Origin: Conexibacter arvalis
GTDB lineage: Bacteria > Actinomycetota > Thermoleophilia > Solirubrobacterales > Solirubrobacteraceae
Length of the DNA stretch: 64,000 nt
Assembly (NCBI RefSeq): GCF_014199525.1
Contig: NZ_JACHNU010000001.1
Location: forward strand, 1,590,182-1,654,181
Direction: 5' to 3'
Below the pieces are notes generated by a model. It was not told the DNA's origin, did not search any database, and saw only the letters and a list, made by a program, of their open reading frames with translations. The translations under genes and the position numbers were made by a program. Shown in pieces: positions 5,851 to 15,322 of this stretch (position 1 is its first letter; each line of letters starts with the position of its first letter).

Positions 5851-7485
5851 CTACGCGTAGACGTCGGGCAGGTCGTTCTCGAACAGGATCACGTCGCCGG
5901 CGCGGGTCAGCTCGGCGAGCTTCGCGTGGGCGGCGGGGCCGTCGGGGAGGGTGAGGATCCGCTCGTCGGGGGCGCCGGCGGCGCGCATCCCGGCGGCGAC
6001 GTCGGCGCCGCGCGGGCCGATCAGGATCGCGACGTCGGCGACCTCGGCGGCGAGCGCGCCGAGTCGGCGGTTCTCCTCCTGCTCGCGCTCGCCCAGCTCG
6101 ACCATGCCCGGGGTGACGAGCAGCCGCCGCGCGGCGGGGTGGTCGCGCAGGACGCCGAGCGCGGCGGCGGCGCCCTCGGGGTTGGCGTTGTAGGAGTCGT
6201 CGATCACGACGACGCCGGCCGCTCTGTTGACGATCGGCGCGAGGCGGTGGTCGGGCGGCGCGACGCGGCCGAGCGCGCGGGCGACGTCGTTCAGCGCCAG
6301 CCCCTCGCCGACGCCGACCGCCGCGGCCGCGAGCAGGTTGGCGACGTTGTGCTCGCCGAGCAGTCTCGCGCGCACCTCGGCGCGCCCCTCCTCCGAGCCG
6401 GCGACGCCCGCTCTGACGACGAGCGCAAAGCGGGTGCGGCCCTCCTCCATCCGCACGTCCTCGGCCCACAGGTCGGCCTCGGGGTGGGGGGCGGGGGCGA
6501 ACAGCAGCACGCGGCCGGCGGCGCGGGTGCGGGCGACCCGCAGCGTCCGCTCGTCGTCGGCGCGCGTGACGAACAGCCCGCCGTCGGCGGGGATCGCGTC
6601 GGCCAGCTCGCCCTTCGCCTGCTCGGTCACGTCGAGCGAGCCGAACCGCTCCAGGTGGGCGGGGCCGATCGCCGTCAGCACGCCGACGCGCGGGTGGACC
6701 AGCTCGCACAGCTCGCGCACGTCGCCGGTGCGGTAGGCGCCCATCTCGACGACGAACGACTGGTGCTGCGGCAGCAGCCCCTCGTTGATCGCGCGGACGA
6801 CGCCGAGCGTGCTGTTGAACGACGCCGGCGTCGGGTACGACGGGCCGAGCAGGTCGAGCACGGCCGTGACGCACGCCTTCGTCGTCGTCTTGCCGTAGGA
6901 GCCGGTGATGCCGACGACCAGCGGTCTGACGTCGCGCAGCCGCTGCTGCGCTCTGTTGAGGAAGCGCTGGTTGTCGGCCTTCTGGACCGGTCTCAGCAGC
7001 GTGTTCGCGACGCCGGCGAGCAGCCACGGCGCCAGCAGCAGCTCGAGCGCCCCGACCGCGCCGACGACGCCCGGCGCCCAGATCCCGTCGCCGCCGAGCG
7101 CGACGACGAGCGCGAGCGGGATCGCGGCGAGCGCCAGCTGCAGGCCGAACAGCCGTCTCGCGCGCGGCGTGAAGACGAGCGGCTTGATCTGCTCGCGGCT
7201 CCACACCATCCGCGCGGCGCGGGCGGCGAGCGCGAGCAGCGTGACGGCGAGCACGACGCCGAGCGCGCCGTTGGCGTCGGCGGCCAGCGCGCTCGCGATG
7301 CTGGCGACGAGCACGAGGCCGGCCTCCGGCAGCGCGAGCCGCACGCCGTATGCCTGCGACACCCACAGGTAGAGCCGTCTCGGCTCGTAGTGCTCCTGCT
7401 GGAAGACGTGCAGCAGCACGTGGCTGGCGCCGGCCATCGCGACGAGCGCCGCGACCGCGACGATCGCGGAGGTGAGCACGGTCAC
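5851..7485 (-). CDS. Membrane-anchored MurF-like Mur ligase
   Basis: A 544-aa protein joining an N-terminal membrane region to a complete Mur ligase. Residues 1-165 hold about five hydrophobic segments. The ATP-binding loop is GITGSYGKTTT at 192-202, the central domain carries IGPAHLERFGS, and the C-terminal domain carries VVIDDSYNANPEG, a MurF signature. MurF proper is soluble, about 450 aa, and adds D-Ala-D-Ala to UDP-MurNAc-tripeptide. Here the membrane region suggests action on a lipid-linked or membrane-proximal substrate. Its GTG start overlaps the stop of the upstream hydrolase gene, and two Ddl homologues are divergent, so a cell-wall ligase role is likely. The exact substrate is inference. 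Confidence 0.82.
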   Translation of the reverse strand: MTVLTSAIVAVAALVAMAGASHVLLHVFQQEHYEPRRLYLWVSQAYGVRLALPEAGLVLVASIASALAADANGALGVVLAVTLLALAARAARMVWSREQIKPLVFTPRARRLFGLQLALAAIPLALVVALGGDGIWAPGVVGAVGALELLLAPWLLAGVANTLLRPVQKADNQRFLNRAQQRLRDVRPLVVGITGSYGKTTTKACVTAVLDLLGPSYPTPASFNSTLGVVRAINEGLLPQHQSFVVEMGAYRTGDVRELCELVHPRVGVLTAIGPAHLERFGSLDVTEQAKGELADAIPADGGLFVTRADDERTLRVARTRAAGRVLLFAPAPHPEADLWAEDVRMEEGRTRFALVVRAGVAGSEEGRAEVRARLLGEHNVANLLAAAAVGVGEGLALNDVARALGRVAPPDHRLAPIVNRAAGVVVIDDSYNANPEGAAAALGVLRDHPAARRLLVTPGMVELGEREQEENRRLGALAAEVADVAILIGPRGADVAAGMRAAGAPDERILTLPDGPAAHAKLAELTRAGDVILFENDLPDVYA

Positions 7486-8348
7486 GGCCGCGCGCCCGCT
7501 CTCGCGTCCGCGTCAGCGCCGCCGACGGCTGCGCCGCCGCGTCTGCCGCCCTGCGTCAGGAAGTGCGCCGCGACGACGTTGAACTGGCCGGCCTGCTCGG
7601 CGTAGGCGTAGTGGCCGCCGCCTCTCAGCACGACGAGGCCGGCGCCCGGGATCTCGCGCTCCATCTTCTCCGCCATCCACATCGGCGTGTCGTCGTCTCT
7701 GTCGCCCCACATCAGCAGCGTCGGCGCCGAGACCTGCGGCAGGCGGGGCGAGAGGTCCTCGGCGAGCACGTTGCGCAGCGTGCCGCGCAGCGCCTCGGGG
7801 GCGGCGAGCCAGTCGGCCGAGGCGACTCTGCCGCGGATGCTCTCCTGCAGCTTCCTGCCGGGCGCGCCGCCGACCTTGGCCGCGGCCTTGCCGACCTTCG
7901 CCATCCCGACCTTGCCGTAGTAGGCGGCTCTCCGTCTCGGCTTGATGCCGGCGGCGCCGGTGAAGACCATCCGCTCGACGCGGTCGCGGCTGTCGGGCTC
8001 GGTCGCGAGCACGAGCGCGATCGCGGCGCCGCGCGAATGGCCGATCAGCGCGAAGCGGCCGATCCCCAGCGCGTCGGCCAGCTTGACGACGAAGCGGGCG
8101 TAGTCGGCGTTGGTCCACGCGCCCGGGACCATGTCCGATCTGCCGTGGCCGGGGAGATCGGGCGCGATCAGCTCGACCTGGTCGCGGAGGCCGGCGAGGA
8201 TCGAACCGAGCGCCTCGATGTGCGCGCCCCAGCCGTGCAGCACGATCACGACCGGGGGATCGGCGATCCCGGCCGGTCTGGTGCGCGCGACGCGCACGCG
8301 GAGGCCGTCGACGGTGACGGTGGAGGTCGTCTCGGAGGGTGCCGGCAC
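7482..8348 (-). CDS. Alpha/beta hydrolase
   Basis: A 288-aa alpha/beta-fold hydrolase. The oxyanion segment HGWG is at residues 38-41, the nucleophile elbow GHSRG at 103-107 (Ser105), the acid lies in the WGDRDDDTP segment and the catalytic His in GGGHYAYAEQ near the C-terminus. I chose the GTG at 8348 because an upstream in-frame extension would run through the intergenic region and overlap the start of the divergent ligase. It is coupled to the MurF-like gene by a GTGA overlap. The substrate is unknown; the setting suggests an ester or amide in cell-envelope metabolism, which is inference only. Confidence 0.82.
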   Translation of the reverse strand: MPAPSETTSTVTVDGLRVRVARTRPAGIADPPVVIVLHGWGAHIEALGSILAGLRDQVELIAPDLPGHGRSDMVPGAWTNADYARFVVKLADALGIGRFALIGHSRGAAIALVLATEPDSRDRVERMVFTGAAGIKPRRRAAYYGKVGMAKVGKAAAKVGGAPGRKLQESIRGRVASADWLAAPEALRGTLRNVLAEDLSPRLPQVSAPTLLMWGDRDDDTPMWMAEKMEREIPGAGLVVLRGGGHYAYAEQAGQFNVVAAHFLTQGGRRGGAAVGGADADARAGARP

Positions 8349-8438: not shown

Positions 8439-8455
8439 TACCCTTCCGCCCCATG
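8439..8455 (+). promoter_or_regulatory. Leaderless-type -10 box before first ddl homologue
   Basis: TACCCT at 8439-8444 is followed by 8 nt and the ATG at 8453, with no Shine-Dalgarno sequence. A locally AT-richer stretch at about 8355-8395 lies between this start and the divergent hydrolase start and probably holds upstream promoter elements for both genes. Confidence 0.4.
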
Positions 8456-9724
8456 CCACTCCCCTCCGGACAGACCGTCGGCGTCGTCTTCGGCGGCCCC
8501 TCGGTCGAGCACGACGTCTCGATCATCACCGCGCAGCAGGCGATGGCGGTGCTCTCCGAGCGCCACGCCGTGATCCCGCTGTACGTCGGCAAGGACGGCC
8601 GCTGGTGGACGGGGGCGGAGCTGCGCGAGGTGTCGGCGTTCACCCAGTCGCCGCCGCGCGGTGGCCGTCCGGTCCAGCTGCGGCTCGGCTCCCCGGACGC
8701 TCCGTTCGTCGAGCCGTCGACGTCGCGCCTGCGCGGCGACAGAGCGCTGCCGATCGGCGTCGTGCTGAACGCGATCCACGGCACCGGCGGCGAGGACGGC
8801 GCGCTGCTCGGCGCGCTGGAGCTGTCGGGGCTCCCGCACGCCGGGCGCGGCGTCGCGGCGTTCGCGGTCGGGATGGACAAGCACCTCGCCAAGACGGTGC
8901 TGAAGGAGGCCGGGATCGACGTGCTGCCGCACCGCCGCGTCGAGCGCGGCGAGTGGGAGGGCGACCGCGCCGCCGTGCTGAGCGCGCTCGCGAGCGACTT
9001 CCCGCCGCCGGTCGTCGTCAAGCCGGCGACGCTCGGCTCGTCGATCGGCGTCGCCCGCTGCGACAGCGCCGCCGAGGTCGAGGAGGCGCTGGAGCTGGCC
9101 TTCGAGCTCGACCGCCAGGCGGTCGTCGAGCCGTTCGCGACCGGCGCGATCGAGCTCAACTGCGCCGTGCTGGGCCGCCCCGGCGGCGAGCTGCGGGTCT
9201 CGGAGGTCGAGCGGCCGCTCGGCAGCGCCGACGGGCTGACCTTCGAGGACAAGTACCTCAGCGCCGGCGGCGCGAAGGGCGGCTCCGGCGGGGCGAAGGG
9301 CGTCGAGGGCGCCGCGTCCGGCACGAAGGGCACGACCGCCGGCGGGACGAAGGGCGGCGGCGCCGGCTCGGGCATGGCCTCGGCAGACCGGATCATCCCC
9401 GCCGACGTCGCGCCGGAGCTGCGCGAGCGGGTGCGCGAGGAGGCCGCGAAGGCCCACCGCGCGCTGCGGGTCGCGGGCGTCGTCCGCTACGACTTCTTCG
9501 TGATGGGCGCCGACGACCCGGCCAGCGCGCGGATCGTCGTCAACGAGCCGAACACCGTTCCCGGCTCGTTCGCCTTCTACCTGTTCGAGCCGACCGGCCT
9601 GCCGTTCGCCGACCTGCTCGACGAGCTGCTCGCGATCGGGCTGGCGGAGGCGCGCGAGGAGCGCTCGACGACGCGCACCTTCGCCTCCGCGCTGATCGAC
9701 CGCCACGCGAGATCGGCGGCCTGA
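8453..9724 (+). CDS. ddl: D-alanine-D-alanine ligase homologue 1
   Basis: A 423-aa ATP-grasp ligase, longer than the usual 310-370 aa. The N-terminal GGPSVEHDVS motif, the nucleotide-binding VVKPATLGSSIGVA motif and the C-terminal metal-binding NEPNTVPGS motif are all present. The omega-loop reads FEDKYLS, close to the classical YEAKY. Directly after it comes an insertion of about 35 Gly/Ala/Lys/Thr-rich residues (bases about 9263-9372) before the family sequence resumes. It would join two D-alanines for the peptidoglycan stem. The ATG at 8453 is supported by a -10-like box 8 nt upstream. The reading is continuous through the insertion, so this is not a frameshift. Confidence 0.85.
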   Translation: MPLPSGQTVGVVFGGPSVEHDVSIITAQQAMAVLSERHAVIPLYVGKDGRWWTGAELREVSAFTQSPPRGGRPVQLRLGSPDAPFVEPSTSRLRGDRALPIGVVLNAIHGTGGEDGALLGALELSGLPHAGRGVAAFAVGMDKHLAKTVLKEAGIDVLPHRRVERGEWEGDRAAVLSALASDFPPPVVVKPATLGSSIGVARCDSAAEVEEALELAFELDRQAVVEPFATGAIELNCAVLGRPGGELRVSEVERPLGSADGLTFEDKYLSAGGAKGGSGGAKGVEGAASGTKGTTAGGTKGGGAGSGMASADRIIPADVAPELRERVREEAAKAHRALRVAGVVRYDFFVMGADDPASARIVVNEPNTVPGSFAFYLFEPTGLPFADLLDELLAIGLAEAREERSTTRTFASALIDRHARSAA

Positions 9725-9810
9725 TGGGCGGCCTGCGCCCAGAGGGCTTGGTCGCCTTGCGAGCGCTCGCCAGAGGCTCGCTCTCGCGCGGGCTGGAGGG
9801 ATCGCGGTGA
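9724..9810 (+). CDS. 28-aa relay ORF between the two ddl homologues
   Basis: A very short ORF whose ATG at 9724 overlaps the stop of the first ligase (TGATG) and whose TGA at 9808-9810 overlaps the GTG start of the second ligase (GTGA). The peptide (MGGLRPEGLVALRALARG...) has no recognisable domain. The exact double overlap suggests that terminating ribosomes are handed on to the second ligase; a functional peptide is possible but unsupported. It could also be coincidence in an 82-nt spacer. Confidence 0.35.
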   Translation: MGGLRPEGLVALRALARGSLSRGLEGSR

Positions 9811-10742
9811 GCAAGGCGCTCGTCGCCTACGGCGGACGGTCGCTGGAGCGCGAGGTCAGCACCCGCTCCGGCCAGCAGGCGGCGAAGGCGCTCAAGCAGC
9901 TGGGGCACGCGGTCGAGCTGGTCGACGTCGGCGCCGACTTCGTCGACGTCGTGCAGCGGGCCGAGCCCGACTTCGTCTTCATCGCCCTGCACGGCGTCGG
10001 CGGCGAGGACGGCACCGTCCAGGACCTGCTGGAGATCCTCCGGGTCCCGTACACCGGCTCCGACGCGCTCGCCTCGGCGATCTGCCTCGACAAGCACACC
10101 TTCAAGAGCCTCTGCGAGCTGCGCGGCGTGCCGACGCCGCCGTGGCACTCGTTCACGAAGCAGGCGTTCGCCGACTACGGCGCCGGCAAGACGCTCGACG
10201 CGCTGTGGGAGCAGTTCGACGGCCGCATGGTCGTCAAGCCGGCGCGTCAGGGCTCGTCGTTCGGGTTGAGCGTCGTGCAGGAGCGCGCCCAGCTCGGCGG
10301 TGCGGTGCTCGGCGCGATGAGCTACGACGACCGCGTCCTGCTGGAGCGGTTCGTCCCCGGCCGCGAGCTGGCGGTGACGGTGCTCGGCCCGGCCGCCGCG
10401 CCCGAGCCGCTGCCGGTCGTCGAGATCGTGATGCACGAGGAGTACTACTCCTTCCAGGCCCACTACGAGATCGGCCAGTCGACCGTTCGGCTCGCCGGCC
10501 TGCCAGATGAGGTCGACGCCCGCGTCAGACGGGTCGCCGCCGACGCCTACGCGGCCGCCGGCTGCCGCGACTTCGCGCGCGTCGACATCCGCCTGGAGGA
10601 TGACACCCCCTACGTGCTGGAGATCAACACGATCCCCGGCCTGACCGAGACCGGCCCGACCCCGCTCGCCGCCGAGCACGCCGGCCTCACCTTCGCCCAG
10701 CTGATCGAGCGCATCGCCAGCCGCGTCGCGAACGGCGGCTGA
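9807..10742 (+). CDS. D-alanine-D-alanine ligase homologue 2 (divergent active site)
   Basis: A 311-aa ATP-grasp protein with typical Ddl length. It keeps the N-terminal SLEREVST motif, the VVKPARQGSSFGL nucleotide site and NTIPGLTETG at the C-terminal metal site. The omega-loop reads FQAHYEIG where D-Ala-D-Ala ligases read YEAKY, so the lysine is His while the tyrosine is kept. The segment after NTIPG is LTETGPTP where E. coli DdlB has MTSHSLVP, so the Ser-Leu pair that contacts the second D-Ala is Gly-Pro. It may therefore use a different second substrate. It starts with GTG in a GTGA overlap with the short ORF before it. Confidence 0.8.
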   Translation: MSKALVAYGGRSLEREVSTRSGQQAAKALKQLGHAVELVDVGADFVDVVQRAEPDFVFIALHGVGGEDGTVQDLLEILRVPYTGSDALASAICLDKHTFKSLCELRGVPTPPWHSFTKQAFADYGAGKTLDALWEQFDGRMVVKPARQGSSFGLSVVQERAQLGGAVLGAMSYDDRVLLERFVPGRELAVTVLGPAAAPEPLPVVEIVMHEEYYSFQAHYEIGQSTVRLAGLPDEVDARVRRVAADAYAAAGCRDFARVDIRLEDDTPYVLEINTIPGLTETGPTPLAAEHAGLTFAQLIERIASRVANGG

Positions 10743-11658: not shown

Positions 11659-11776
11659 CTGGCCAGGTGGACCAGATCTCTCGGCTCGCTGCCGAGGCTA
11701 GCCGCCTCCCCGCCACCGCGCAACCGCACGGATGTGGCGTGCGTGCGGTGGCACCGCATCGGCCGGCTGCGGCGCA

Positions 11777-11793
11777 TAGGGTCCAGGCTGATG
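11777..11793 (+). promoter_or_regulatory. Leaderless-type -10 box before GH3 gene
   Basis: TAGGGT at 11777-11782 is followed by 8 nt and the ATG at 11791. No Shine-Dalgarno sequence is visible. Confidence 0.45.
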
Positions 11794-13158
11794 CCGCACC
11801 GCCGCCGCTCCACCCACGGGCCGACCGCGATCCGCCGGAGGCAGATCGCGCTGGTGCTCGTCGCGCTGCTCGCGCTCGCCGCCGGCATCGCGATCGGAGC
11901 CGGCTCGGGCGGAGACGGCGACGGCCGCGCCGGCGGCTCCGCGGCGACGAGCGCGGGCGCGCCGGGCGCCTCCGGCGGCGGCCAAGGCGCAGGCGGCAGC
12001 CGCGACGAGGGCGCTCCGACCGGCGGCGACGACGCCGCGGGGACCGGCGAAGGCGGCGCGCCTGCCGACGACGAATCGGCCGGCGGCGGCGAAGGCGGCG
12101 CGCCGGCCGGCGAGGACGCTGCCGGCGGCGACGCAGCCGCCGCGGAGCGCGCGCGGGGGCGGGTCGAGCGGATGTCGCTCGAGCGCCAGGTCGGCGAGCT
12201 GCTGGTGATCTCCTTCTCGGGCACGACCCCGCCGCAGTACGTGCTCGACGCGCTGCGCGGGAGACGGGCCGCCGGCGTGATCCTGTTCGGCCCCAACGCA
12301 CCCTCCGCGGCGAGCGTCCGCGCGCTCAGCGCCCGCGTCCAGCGTGCGGCCGGCGGCGACGCGATCGTCTCGCTCGACCAGGAGGGCGGCGACATCCGCA
12401 CGCTGAAGTTCGCCCCGCCGCAGCGGGGCCAGGCGTCGCAGCCGGGGCCCGCCGCCGCGGCGGCCTCCGCCCGCGCCGCCGCCCGGGCGCTGCGCCAGGT
12501 CGGCGTCAACGTGACGCTCGGGCCGGTCGCCGACGTCGCGCTCGCCCCCGGCTCGTTCATGGCGTCGCGCGTCTACCGGGGCGGTCCCGAGGAGGTCGGG
12601 AGATCGGTCGCCGCGGCGGTCGGCGCCTATCGCCGGGCGGGGATCGAGACGACGCCAAAGCACTTCCCCGGCGTCGGCGCCGCCACGCAGAACACCGACT
12701 TCGGCAGCGCGGCGATCGACCGCACGCGCGCCCAGCTCCTCGCCGAGGAGCTGGTCCCGTTCCGCGCCGCGATCGACGCCGGCGCGCGGCTGGTGATGGT
12801 CGGACACGCGCGGATGACGGGGATCGACCCCGGCCGCATCGCGTCGCAGTCGCGCGCCGTCGTGCGCGGGCTGCTGCGCGACGAGCTCGGCTTCGACGGC
12901 GTCGTGATGACCGACTCGCTCGAGGCCGAGGCGGTCGACGCGGCGACGCCCGGAGACCGCGACGTCGGCGCCGCCGCCGTCCGCTCGCTCGCCGCCGGCT
13001 GCGACCTCCTGCTGCTGACCGGCGCCGGCTCCTTCCCGCTCGCGCGCGAGGCGCTGATCGCGGCCGCCCGCGCCGATCGCCGCATCCGCGCCCGCGTCGC
13101 CGAGTCGGCCGCGCGCGTCCTGCTGCTGCGCGAACGGCTCGCGCAGCGCGAAGGCTGA
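11791..13158 (+). CDS. Membrane-anchored GH3 beta-N-acetylhexosaminidase-like protein
   Basis: A 455-aa protein. After a basic N-terminus, residues about 18-37 form one membrane anchor, followed by roughly 80 residues of Gly/Ala/Glu/Asp-rich linker and then a glycoside hydrolase family 3 domain from RMSLERQVGELL to the end. Family features seen are DQEGG in the first third, KHFPGVGAATQNTD (the NagZ-type KHFPG-x-G loop) and the C-terminal VVMTDSLEAEAV with the candidate nucleophile Asp. NagZ enzymes release N-acetylglucosamine from peptidoglycan fragments; NagZ-like specificity is inferred. Being surface-tethered, it probably trims extracellular muropeptides. The ATG at 11791 is backed by the -10 box just upstream. 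Confidence 0.83.
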   Translation: MPHRRRSTHGPTAIRRRQIALVLVALLALAAGIAIGAGSGGDGDGRAGGSAATSAGAPGASGGGQGAGGSRDEGAPTGGDDAAGTGEGGAPADDESAGGGEGGAPAGEDAAGGDAAAAERARGRVERMSLERQVGELLVISFSGTTPPQYVLDALRGRRAAGVILFGPNAPSAASVRALSARVQRAAGGDAIVSLDQEGGDIRTLKFAPPQRGQASQPGPAAAAASARAAARALRQVGVNVTLGPVADVALAPGSFMASRVYRGGPEEVGRSVAAAVGAYRRAGIETTPKHFPGVGAATQNTDFGSAAIDRTRAQLLAEELVPFRAAIDAGARLVMVGHARMTGIDPGRIASQSRAVVRGLLRDELGFDGVVMTDSLEAEAVDAATPGDRDVGAAAVRSLAAGCDLLLLTGAGSFPLAREALIAAARADRRIRARVAESAARVLLLRERLAQREG

Positions 13159-13239: not shown

Positions 13240-13339
13240 GCGGCCGACCGCCGGTCGCGCCGGCCAGCCGCCGCCAGCCCCGCCGGCCCGCTCGCCCCGC
13301 ACCTCCACGCGCCCGACCCGGTGCGTCGACACCGCATCG

Positions 13340-13382
13340 ATTCCGCATCAAACTTGTTATGCCGACCAGAATGGTGCGGAAT
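13340..13382 (+). promoter_or_regulatory. Inverted repeat in sulfate operon leader
   Basis: ATTCCGCA (13340-13347) and TGCGGAAT (13375-13382) form perfect 8-bp arms separated by 27 nt, in one of the most AT-rich stretches of the window. TAATAT at 13386-13391 is a candidate -10 box. This looks like an operator-promoter region for the sulfate transporter, perhaps answering sulfur status; the regulator is not in the window. Confidence 0.45.
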
Positions 13383-13434
13383 GTGTAATATGCCGAATCC
13401 CTATCCGATTTCGTCCTTTTCTGGGAGGAAACCT

Positions 13435-14463
13435 GTGACATCACGCACGTCCGTCGTCCTCGCATTGGCCGCCGCGATCGTCGCCCTCGTGGTCGCCGGC
13501 TGCGGCGGATCGAGCGATGAAGCGGGTGGCGGCGACTCCGCCAACGACGACGCCGGCACGAAGCTGTCGCTCGTCGCGTACGCGGTTCCGAAGGTCGGCT
13601 TCGACAAGGTGATCCCGGCGTTCCAGGCGACGCCCAAGGGCAGAGGGATCGGCTTCAGCCAGTCCTACGGCGCCTCCGGCGATCAGTCGCGCAAGGTCGA
13701 GGCGGGCCTCTCGACCGACGTCGTCAACTTCTCGGTCGAGCCCGACATCACCCGCCTCGTCGACGCCGGGCTCGTCGACGACGACTGGAACGCCGGCGAG
13801 CACAGAGGGATCCCGTTCGGCTCGGTCGTCACGATCGTCGTTCGCAGAGGCAACCCGCTCGGCATCAGAGACTGGGACGACCTGTTGAGAGACGGCGTCG
13901 AGGTCGTCACTCCGAACCCGTTCAGCTCCGGCTCGGCGAAGTGGAACCTGCTCGCGCCGTACGCCGACAAGAGCGAGGGCGGCAGAGACCCGCAGGCCGG
14001 CCTCGACTACCTGCAGAAGCTGATCGGCGAGCACATCAGAGTCCAGCCGAGATCGGGCCGCGAGGCGACCGAGACCTTCCTCCAGGGCACCGGCGACGTC
14101 CTGCTCAGCTACGAGAACGAGGCCTACTTCATCGAGGAGCAGGGCGAGGAGGTCGAGCACATAAACCCGGCCGTCACGTTCAAGATCGAGAACCCGGTCG
14201 CGGTCGTCAACAGAACGAAGTTCCCCGACGAGACGCAGGCGTTCGTCGACTACCTCTACACGCCCGAGGCGCAGAGACTGTGGGCCGAGGCCGGCTTCCG
14301 CCCCGTCGACGCGACCGTCGCCGCCGAGTTCAGAGACAAGTTCCCGGAGCCTGCGACGCTGTGGACGATCGCCGACCTCGGCGGCTGGGGCAGAGTGAAC
14401 GACGAGCTGTTCGACGAGGAGAACGGCTCGGTCGCGAAGATCTACGACGAGGCGACCAGCTAG
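13435..14463 (+). CDS. Sulfate/thiosulfate ABC transporter binding lipoprotein
   Basis: A 342-aa extracytoplasmic solute-binding protein of the sulfate/thiosulfate (Sbp/CysP) family. The GTG start at 13435 is set by the GGGAGG site 6 nt upstream. A lipoprotein signal peptide ends in VVAGCGG (lipobox, Cys near residue 23), so it is tethered outside the cell. Family landmarks are LVAYAVPKVGFDKVIP, SYGASGDQSRKV, FSSGSAKW and VLLSYENEA. It delivers sulfate to CysTW. Codon use is odd: by my reading about two thirds of Arg codons are AGA despite the high GC content, unlike the permease genes downstream. Confidence 0.9.
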   Translation: MTSRTSVVLALAAAIVALVVAGCGGSSDEAGGGDSANDDAGTKLSLVAYAVPKVGFDKVIPAFQATPKGRGIGFSQSYGASGDQSRKVEAGLSTDVVNFSVEPDITRLVDAGLVDDDWNAGEHRGIPFGSVVTIVVRRGNPLGIRDWDDLLRDGVEVVTPNPFSSGSAKWNLLAPYADKSEGGRDPQAGLDYLQKLIGEHIRVQPRSGREATETFLQGTGDVLLSYENEAYFIEEQGEEVEHINPAVTFKIENPVAVVNRTKFPDETQAFVDYLYTPEAQRLWAEAGFRPVDATVAAEFRDKFPEPATLWTIADLGGWGRVNDELFDEENGSVAKIYDEATS

Positions 14464-14467
14464 GCGC

Positions 14468-15322
14468 ATGTCGACCGTCGTGCAGGCAAGACCGGAGGGC
14501 GGCGCTCGCAGGCGCGGGCGCCGCTCCCGTTCCTACGGCGGCGGCGTCGGTCCCCTCGGGATCGGCGTCGCCACGCTGTGGCTGAGCATCATCGTCCTGC
14601 TGCCGCTCGCGGCCGTCCTCGCGAAGTCGCTCGAGGGCGGCCCGGCCGGCCTGTGGGACGCGATCAACGCCCCGTCGGCGCGCGCCGCGCTGATCCTGAC
14701 CGTCGCGATCTCCGCGGTCGTCGCGTTGATCAACGTCGTCGTCGGCACCCTGATCGCGTGGGTGCTGGTGCGCGACGAGTTCCCCGGCAAGGGCTTCGTC
14801 AACGCGCTGATCGACCTCCCGTTCGCGCTGCCGACGATCGTCGCCTCGATCGTGCTGCTGTCGCTCTACGGGCCCAACAGCCCGATCGACCTCGACCTCT
14901 ACGCGACCAAGCCGGCGGTCGCGATCGCGCTGCTGTTCGTCACGCTTCCGTTCGTCGTCCGCTCGGTCCAGCCGGTGCTGATGGAGGTCGACAGAGAGGC
15001 CGAGCAGGCCGCGGCGTCGCTCGGCGCCGGCAACCTCACGATCTTCCGCCGCATCGTGCTGCCGGCGCTCGTGCCGGCGCTGCTCGGCGGCGCCGGCCTC
15101 GCCTTCGCCCGCGCGATCGGCGAGTTCGGCTCGGTCGTGCTGATCGGCGGCGGCATCCCGCGCGAGACCGAGGTCGCCTCGCAGTACATCGCCAAGCAGA
15201 TCGAGATCGACCGGCCCGAGAGCGCCGCGGCCGTCTCGGTCGCGCTGCTCGTGATCGCGTTCCTCGTCCTGTTCGTCCTGCGGCTCGCCGCGGCGCGGAC
15301 CCAACGCCACGAGAGAGGCTGA
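14468..15322 (+). CDS. cysT: Sulfate ABC transporter permease CysT
   Basis: A 284-aa inner-membrane permease with about six transmembrane helices after a basic N-terminal tail. The cytoplasmic coupling loop carries EAAASLGAG-type sequence ([23 protein letters not shown]), the site that docks to the ATPase. [23 protein letters not shown] is characteristic of CysT/CysU. It pairs with CysW to form the sulfate channel. It starts 4 nt after the binding-protein stop and ends 2 nt before cysW, so the genes are one operon. Confidence 0.92.

What the first reader, a model, noticed from the sequence alone, without database searches (positions are those of the whole stretch)
8453..10742. Two tandem Ddl homologues with diverged substrate-binding loops
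Copy 1 keeps a near-classical omega-loop but carries a 35-residue low-complexity insertion next to it. Copy 2 has AHY for AKY in the omega-loop and Gly-Pro for the Ser-Leu that binds the second D-Ala. With a divergent membrane-anchored MurF-like ligase, this looks like an alternative stem-peptide terminus or a second dipeptide.
Basis: partly seen in the sequence, partly recalled or inferred. Interest (0 to 1): 0.62.

Follow-up and report, generated by a model that had tools for sequence, protein, structure and literature searches.

The report
Membrane-anchored MurF with paired Ddl ligases
Two neighbouring cell-wall ligases belong to a widespread gene set, with a membrane-embedded MurF-like enzyme and a hydrolase, that seems to have replaced the textbook enzymes completing the peptidoglycan building block, which suggests that this essential step may happen at the membrane in some bacteria.

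Summary
In detail: two intact Ddl homologues lie at 8453-9724 and 9807-10742, with the loop changes described. They are not tandem duplicates. Copy 1 (Ddl1) belongs to a separate, multi-phylum Ddl clade; copy 2 (Ddl2) groups with the Thermoleophilia DdlB line. With a membrane MurF-like gene (5851-7485) and an alpha/beta hydrolase they form a module. Its hydrolase/TM-MurF/Ddl1 part recurs in Thermoleophilia, Poribacteria, Chloroflexi, Acidobacteria, Omnitrophota, Clostridia and Bacilli records; in Poribacteria it occupies the murF slot. I found no other MurF or Ddl in the window genome, so this looks like its main stem-peptide branch, not a second one.

TM-MurF keeps the Mur catalytic core, but about five hydrophobic helices replace the UDP-binding domain. 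Conexibacter woesei has the module plus a separate vanHAX-murF cluster and is reported teicoplanin-susceptible; this favours an ordinary D-Ala-D-Ala end, argues against D-Lac, and does not exclude D-Ser. Ddl2's changes (His for Lys/Arg215, Gly for Ser281) are fixed in 6 of 6 relatives and the gene is under purifying selection; its product is open. Boldest reading: D-Ala-D-Ala is added to a lipid-linked tripeptide, reversing textbook order. All function is inferred from sequence.

The parts
5851..7485 (-). TM-MurF: membrane-anchored MurF-like ligase, 544 aa (GTG start)
   Evidence: (Mur_ligase_M and _C; TIGR01143 209 bits, cut-off 288.6, profile positions 61-403 only)
6928..7485 (-). Residues 1-186 of TM-MurF: all-helical domain with five hydrophobic segments in place of the UDP-binding domain; Q29, Y33, T106, R108, R111 invariant in 85 rows (one locus counted twice)
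5863..5880 (-). C-terminal signature E-N-D-L-P-D (residues 536-541) where E. coli MurF has V-K-G-S-R
7482..8348 (-). alpha/beta hydrolase; start codon uncertain (GTG 8348 proposed; GTG 8297, TTG 8357/8372 and GTG 8459 also in frame); stop overlaps TM-MurF start by 4 bases (GTGA)
   Evidence: catalytic Ser, Asp, His in 81 of 81 rows (one locus counted twice)
8453..9724 (+). Ddl1 (copy 1), 423 aa
9251..9256 (+). Ddl1 omega-loop K267-Y268 (E. coli DdlB K215-Y216)
9266..9373 (+). Ddl1 low-complexity, predicted disordered stretch, residues 272-307
9563..9568 (+). Ddl1 G371-S372, aligned with DdlB G276 and S281 with the four residues between absent; a helix begins at 371
9807..10742 (+). Ddl2 (copy 2), 311 aa (GTG start)
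   Evidence: (PRK01372 289.5 bits over cut-off 243; TIGR01205 256.3 over 245.65)
10461..10466 (+). Ddl2 H219-Y220 (DdlB K215-Y216)
10653..10658 (+). Ddl2 G283-P284 (DdlB S281-L282)

Best explanation
The locus is the organism's own and apparently only branch for finishing the peptidoglycan stem peptide. Ddl1 makes the terminal dipeptide, most likely D-Ala-D-Ala. TM-MurF, a Mur ligase whose UDP-binding domain has been exchanged for a membrane domain, couples that dipeptide to the tripeptide stem at the inner face of the membrane. The alpha/beta hydrolase is a near-constant partner of unknown task (editing or removal of wrong products is a guess). Ddl2 descends from the Thermoleophilia DdlB line, was kept beside the module and has changed acceptor positions. 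Shown: gene content, conservation, absence of other detectable MurF and Ddl, fold of the models, intact catalytic residues. Inferred: substrates, product, site of action.
For: Only Ddl pair and only MurF found in the window genome, with mraY present. Its cell-wall cluster has murE directly before mraY, with no murF. TM-MurF was the bait; of 84 locus rows (83 distinct, since L060 and L111 are one contig), a Ddl1 lies within 1.5 kb in 81 and the hydrolase within 0.5 kb in 81. In 5 of 5 Poribacteria loci the three genes sit between a Mur ligase in murE position and mraY. Of 22 module genomes from the scan, 14 show nothing above about 104 bits for MurF except TM-MurF, 3 show 109-146 bit matches (a true MurE gives 126 bits), 5 also have a canonical MurF; mraY is in 22 of 22. 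Ddl1 is the only Dala_Dala_lig_C match at E<=1e-12 in 10 of the 22. Nearest solved folds of TM-MurF are MurF chains (4qf5 Z 39.7, rmsd 2.8, 369 residues; 3zl8 Z 39.4). Catalytic residues invariant. C. woesei data.
Against: No biochemistry. Most loci outside Conexibacter are metagenome assemblies, so absence of canonical genes is weaker there. In G098, G204, G205, G207, G210 and G211 a canonical MurF coexists, so the module is not always the only branch. In L061 (G098) and L141 a VanX-type dipeptidase gene follows the module, which would fit an alternative terminus there. 12 of the 22 genomes have further Dala_Dala_lig_C matches, some of them clear second Ddls. TM-MurF scores below NCBI's MurF cut-off. 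Teicoplanin susceptibility does not exclude D-Ala-D-Ser (VanC-type strains; recalled).
Confidence: 0.7

Rival explanations
1. One reading: the module makes an alternative stem terminus or second dipeptide (for example ending in D-Ser or another D-amino acid).
For: Ddl2 acceptor positions changed in 6 of 6; Ddl1 has a shortened acceptor loop; a VanX-type gene follows the module in L061 and L141; a MurF travels with the ligase.
Against: No other MurF or Ddl found in the window genome or in G158 and G199; no VanX-type gene at E<=1e-6 in G000, G158, G199 or G200; C. woesei keeps a separate vanHAX-murF set and is reported teicoplanin-susceptible. Ddl1 keeps Lys215, Tyr216 and Ser281 equivalents.
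Confidence: 0.18
2. Same module and product, but TM-MurF still uses soluble UDP-MurNAc-tripeptide; the membrane part only tethers it near MraY.
For: Middle and C-terminal domains match MurF; nothing in the sequence shows the donor.
Against: The MurF profile match begins at position 44-74 in TM-MurF of the 5 Thermoleophilia and 22 other module genomes, so the UDP-binding domain is not recognisable; polar residues at helix ends are invariant in 85 rows, more than an anchor needs. Precedent: MurT lacks this domain and acts on lipid II (PMC6113224, passages).
Confidence: 0.35
3. Ddl2 is an inactive relic or a non-catalytic partner of Ddl1.
For: Loss of the Ser that contacts the second D-Ala (role recalled).
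Against: The twelve other catalytic positions checked are kept in 6 of 6; dN/dS 0.23 against C. woesei, lower than Ddl1 (0.36) and TM-MurF (0.34).
Confidence: 0.15
4. The module serves another polymer or pathway than peptidoglycan.
For: Mur-type ligases also act in cyanophycin and F430 synthesis (weak matches).
Against: Position in the murF slot in Poribacteria; no other MurF found in many mraY-bearing module genomes.
Confidence: 0.05

Closest known systems
MurF (TIGR01143; UDP-MurNAc-tripeptide:D-Ala-D-Ala ligase)
   Same: Mur middle and C-terminal domains, P-loop and other conserved residues; best structural matches are MurF chains; takes the murF slot in the cell-wall cluster of Poribacteria
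   Different: N-terminal UDP-binding domain replaced by a hydrophobic helical domain; V-K-G-S-R replaced by E-N-D-L-P-D; score under the family cut-off
MurT of MurT/GatD (lipid II amidation)
   Same: Mur ligase without the UDP-binding domain (PMC6113224, passages); MurT chains match the TM-MurF profile weakly
   Different: In the passages seen, MurT has only a short flexible N-terminus, works with the glutaminase GatD and amidates; TM-MurF matches MurF far better. The window genome has a separate MurT-like gene
D-Ala-D-Ala ligases DdlA/DdlB
   Same: Fold (Ddl1 model) and catalytic residues
   Different: Ddl1: own clade, four residues missing before Ser281, extended omega-loop region, linked to TM-MurF. 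Ddl2: His for Lys/Arg215, Gly for Ser281
vanHAX clusters, some with murF (PMC8698665, passages)
   Same: A Ddl-type ligase encoded beside a MurF
   Different: No VanH or VanX among the window genes read around the module, and no VanX-type gene in the genome; MurF is membrane-embedded; C. woesei carries a vanHAX-murF set as well

Membership tests
MurF (TIGR01143) | Score over NCBIfam cut-off (288.6 bits) | tested here: not met
   209.1 bits
MurF (TIGR01143) | N-terminal UDP-binding domain | tested here: not met
   Match starts at profile position 61; residues 1-186 all-helical and hydrophobic
MurF (TIGR01143) | Mur middle and C-terminal catalytic domains with ATP P-loop | tested here: met
   PF08245, PF02875; GSxGKT invariant; fold
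MurF (TIGR01143) | Adds D-Ala-D-Ala to the stem tripeptide | not testable with these tools
   Inferred from context only
Ddl (TIGR01205 / PRK01372) | Copy 2 over subfamily cut-off | tested here: met
   289.5 over 243 and 256.3 over 245.65
Ddl (TIGR01205 / PRK01372) | Copy 2 keeps Lys/Arg215 and Ser281 | tested here: not met
   His and Gly in 6 of 6
Ddl (TIGR01205 / PRK01966) | Copy 1 over a subfamily cut-off | tested here: not met
   233.5 under 262; 199.7 under 245.65
Ddl (TIGR01205 / PRK01966) | Copy 1 fold and catalytic residues | tested here: met
   Both Pfam domains, fold, E15, H63, K97, K144, S150, E187, K215, Y216, R255, D257, E270, N272, G276, S281 equivalents in 25 of 25
VanA-type D-Ala-D-Lac / VanC-type D-Ala-D-Ser ligase | Over a Van model's cut-off | tested here: not met
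   All Van models shown are far under cut-off for both copies; the C. woesei VanA-type ligase passes the D-Ala-D-Lac equivalog (598.3 over 550), so the test works
vanHAX cluster | VanX-type dipeptidase in the genome | tested here: not met
   No PF01427 at E<=1e-6 in G000
MurT/GatD | GatD glutaminase partner and DUF1727 C-terminal domain | not tested
   No GatD search was run; Pfam gave Mur_ligase_C, not DUF1727, for TM-MurF

The most novel reading that the evidence does not exclude
In several phyla the last stem-peptide step is moved from the cytosol to the membrane: MraY (and perhaps MurG) uses the UDP-MurNAc-tripeptide, and an integral-membrane MurF then adds D-Ala-D-Ala to lipid-linked tripeptide, with a dedicated Ddl and a serine hydrolase as fixed partners. 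This would be a reordered peptidoglycan pathway.
Probability: 0.42. Interest if true: 0.85.

Novelty: new variant of a known kind. Interest (0 to 1): 0.63.

Why it matters
D-Ala-D-Ala addition is among the most conserved steps of peptidoglycan synthesis and an antibiotic target. A linked replacement module in several phyla means that annotation by canonical murF and ddl misjudges which bacteria can make a wall. If the membrane MurF acts on a lipid-linked tripeptide, the textbook order of the pathway is not universal. A cultured type strain (Conexibacter woesei) carries the module, so the question can be tested directly.

Tried and rejected
Rejected: tandem duplication (the two copies fall in different parts of the Ddl tree). 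Rejected: copy 1's insert as a functional domain (disordered in the model, length varies from a few to about 50 residues among the relatives shown). Rejected: Tyr376 as the Ser281 equivalent of copy 1; the gapped alignment and a helix beginning at 371 put S372 there; model coordinates were not inspected. Dropped: a plasmid-borne module (no plasmid match covers 80% of TM-MurF, the rows listed span its Mur core only, and one distant Ddl). The correlation of TM-MurF, Ddl1 and hydrolase distances over 79 rows (0.94-0.96) has no background control and is not used as proof of co-transfer. Literature: searches and 81 of the open PubMed Central library showed no paper that by its listing describes the module; subscription papers and preprints were not searched, and one search returned mostly muscle MuRF papers. 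Papers PMC6113224, PMC3035278, PMC8698665, PMC9689679 and PMC12786226 were seen as passages only; all others as search listings. The membrane domain was not folded alone, so whether it resembles a known membrane fold is untested.

Dropped or hidden rows: L060 and L111 are the same contig, so the 84 locus rows are 83 loci, and the 85-row TM-MurF and 81-row Ddl1 and hydrolase counts hold one locus twice. An overlap filter hid genes of L112, L058 and L059 (its table shows Ddl1 in 80 and hydrolase in 77; without the filter 81 and 81). Rows without Ddl1: L119, L133, L186; without hydrolase: L133, L168, L186. Structure alignments used 48 of 85 TM-MurF and 41 of 81 Ddl1 rows; the Ddl tree used 25 Ddl1 and 6 Ddl2; the MurF tree used 30 TM-MurF and only 3 of 10 class MurF loci, because of a motif filter in the script.

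The gene between murC and ftsZ, which I read as ftsQ, matches no family.
Full report
WHAT IS THERE. The window lies in a 5.2 Mb genome, 99.16% complete, of high G+C content. One genome of the same genus, G159, has a contig of 6,359,369 bases, the exact length of the Conexibacter woesei chromosome (PMC3035278, passages), so I take the class to be Thermoleophilia and G159 to be C. woesei or its equal. Copy 1 (Ddl1, 8453-9724) and copy 2 (Ddl2, 9807-10742) are intact. Divergently, on the minus strand, lie an alpha/beta hydrolase (ending 7482) and a MurF-like gene (5851-7485) whose start overlaps the hydrolase stop by four bases.

THE TWO LIGASES HAVE DIFFERENT ORIGINS. In a tree of 86 Ddl rows, 25 Ddl1 proteins form one clade (100/99) on the DdlA/VanA side; 6 Ddl2 proteins form one clade (100/99) within a group of 26 Thermoleophilia DdlB-type enzymes plus Ddl2 (97/93) (the program warns of long branches, E. 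coli DdlB among them, and whether Ddl2 lies inside or beside the DdlB-type rows is not settled, 72/74). So Ddl1 belongs to a widespread separate line and Ddl2 to the local one.

RESIDUES. With E. coli DdlB numbering (roles of these residues are recalled, not taken from a call): position 215 is Lys in Ddl1 25 of 25 and DdlA-type 24 of 24, Arg in DdlB-type 26 of 26, His in Ddl2 6 of 6; position 281 is Ser in Ddl1 25, DdlA-type 24, DdlB-type 26, VanA-type 3 and both E. coli rows, but Gly in Ddl2 6 of 6; position 282 is Pro in 4 and Ile in 2 Ddl2. Tyr216 and the other positions checked are kept in both. In Ddl1 the Gly and Ser are contiguous, so four residues are missing there, in 25 of 25 tree rows and 81 of 81 rows; in the model a helix starts at that point (mean pLDDT 86.8). 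Between the window and C. woesei, dN/dS by a Nei-Gojobori script is 0.36 (Ddl1), 0.23 (Ddl2) and 0.34 (TM-MurF): all three are under purifying selection.

THE MURF-LIKE PROTEIN. Pfam finds the Mur middle and C-terminal domains. The MurF model matches only from position 61, 209 bits under a cut-off of 288.6. Residues 1-186 hold five hydrophobic segments in a simple Kyte-Doolittle scan (3 to 5 in 76 of 85 rows) and are all-helical in a confident model (mean pLDDT 93.7). The rest matches MurF best among solved structures (4qf5 Z 39.7, rmsd 2.8, 369 residues; 3zl8 Z 39.4). In 85 rows Q29, Y33, T106, R108 and R111 are invariant; in the model they lie at or near helix ends (helices 2-30, 35-71, 107-131), which by the order of helices would be the side of the catalytic domain (inference). 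The protein ends in a conserved E-N-D-L-P-D where E. coli MurF has V-K-G-S-R. 30 TM-MurF rows form one clade (100/100) apart from the few canonical and van-type MurF rows used.

A MODULE FOUND IN MANY PHYLA. Record titles name Thermoleophilia, Poribacteria, Anaerolineae and other Chloroflexi, Acidobacteria, Omnitrophota (one record), Clostridia, Bacilli, and single records labelled Bacteroidales and Sphingomonadales (titles of metagenome assemblies may be wrong). Over these and four Thermoleophilia loci, 84 rows or 83 distinct loci, a Ddl1 lies within 1.5 kb of TM-MurF in 81 rows and the hydrolase within 0.5 kb in 81 rows (the filtered table shows 80 and 77). Catalytic Ser, Asp and His of the hydrolase are invariant in 81 of 81 rows. 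In 5 of 5 Poribacteria loci (L114-L117, L122) the order is mraW, a Mur ligase in murE position, hydrolase, TM-MurF, Ddl1, mraY, a Mur ligase in murD position, ftsW, murG, murC: the slot of murF in E. coli. Among the loci searched, Ddl2 was seen only in Thermoleophilia (the window, L058, L059, L060 = L111, L110, L112, L113), not in L061.

IT SEEMS TO REPLACE MURF AND DDL. In the window genome the Ddl C-terminal model finds the two copies and four weaker matches, which are three biotin-dependent carboxylases and the large subunit of carbamoyl-phosphate synthase. The MurF model finds TM-MurF; the other matches are MurE, MurD, MurC and a MurT-like protein. MurE lies next to mraY, with no murF between, and between murC and ftsZ there is no ddl. 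G158 and G199 likewise show TM-MurF only (E<=1e-25) and only the two Ddls (E<=1e-12). In the class sample, 175 of 200 genomes have a MurF over the cut-off; of the 25 others three are the module genomes G000, G158 and G199, five had no match at 1e-40, and 17 had weaker or split matches that I did not sort. The two remaining module genomes of that sample, G159 and G098, do have one: in G159 it is the van-type MurF, in G098 a canonical one. Of 22 genomes reached from the named loci, 14 have no MurF match above about 104 bits except TM-MurF; G214, G215 and G221 have further ones of 109-146 bits, the size that a MurE gives (126 bits); G204, G205, G207, G210 and G211 also have a canonical MurF (G207's in two pieces under the cut-off). 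In 10 of the 22 Ddl1 is the only Dala_Dala_lig_C match at E<=1e-12; in six more (G201, G202, G203, G209, G211, G216) the others are weak (about 1e-12 to 1e-14) or pieces of the same gene and were not examined; the remaining six (G200, G204, G205, G207, G210, G215) have a further Ddl-like match. As a control for incomplete assemblies, mraY was found in 27 of 27 module genomes, over the cut-off in 26.

WHAT IT MAKES. C. woesei carries the module and, elsewhere (L062), a histidine kinase, a response regulator, a VanH-type dehydrogenase (best VanH model 558 bits, under its exception cut-off), a D-Ala-D-Lac ligase (598.3 bits, over the equivalog cut-off 550), a VanX-type dipeptidase (191.8 bits), a soluble MurF (331 bits, over the cut-off) and a VanY-type carboxypeptidase. 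It has A1gamma meso-DAP peptidoglycan and is listed as susceptible to teicoplanin. A resistance cluster that swaps the terminus, and brings its own MurF, makes sense if the default is D-Ala-D-Ala. This argues against a D-Lac default but not against D-Ser, since VanC-type D-Ser strains stay teicoplanin-susceptible (recalled). No VanX-type gene was found in G000, G158, G199 or G200. In G098 a canonical MurF and a second Ddl coexist with the module and a VanX-type gene follows it; there an alternative terminus remains possible.

WHERE IT ACTS. MurT, which amidates lipid II, also lacks the UDP-binding domain; its structure paper argues that the domain would be unnecessary and would likely clash with the membrane (PMC6113224, passages). 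By the same logic TM-MurF may act on lipid-linked tripeptide. This is inference; a tethered enzyme using UDP-MurNAc-tripeptide is the main rival.

VERDICT. I did not find it described (searches; open-access library, listings only). It works like MurF plus Ddl; TM-MurF fails two membership features of MurF, so I call it MurF-like.

Noticed in passing
window 11734-13158; L058 6519-7955: A glycoside hydrolase family 3 gene (PF00933 154 bits; beta-N-acetylhexosaminidase model 121 bits, under its cut-off 207) lies next to the module in the window genome; a similar gene by reading lies there in C. woesei. NagZ-type enzymes act in wall recycling (recalled).
   Followed up: partly
L062 5140-12536 (C. 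woesei), L070, L072: vanHAX-murF type clusters in three genomes of the family (domains checked for L062 only); in C. woesei this holds the only MurF over the cut-off.
   Followed up: partly
L061 11117-11794; L141 12746-13441: A VanX-type D-Ala-D-Ala dipeptidase gene downstream of the module (after a HEAT-repeat gene in L061).
   Followed up: partly
L089 8877-10277 (window genome, contig C4): A MurT-like protein (273 bits for the lipid II isoglutaminyl synthase MurT model, under its cut-off 800), so the window genome may also modify lipid II.
   Followed up: no
L060 10787-11824: Ddl2 of G199 carries a proline/alanine/threonine-rich insert of about 24 residues, another sign that loops expand in these high-GC genomes.
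   Followed up: no
L063/L064, L067/L068, L071/L073, L075/L076: In the 4 of 4 module-free Thermoleophilia examined for it (G174, G007, G120, G063) there are two unlike Ddls, a DdlA-type with Lys215 and a DdlB-type with Arg215; why two is unclear.
   Followed up: no
window 13321-15322: A solute-binding protein and an ABC permease, with further transporter-like genes to about 17084 by reading, follow the module; similar genes lie beside it in C. woesei (L058 3683-6352, by reading).
   Followed up: no
G207:C14:43605-45968: Two neighbouring Mur ligases before mraY in a Bacilli genome with the module; whether one is a divergent MurF was not decided.
   Followed up: no
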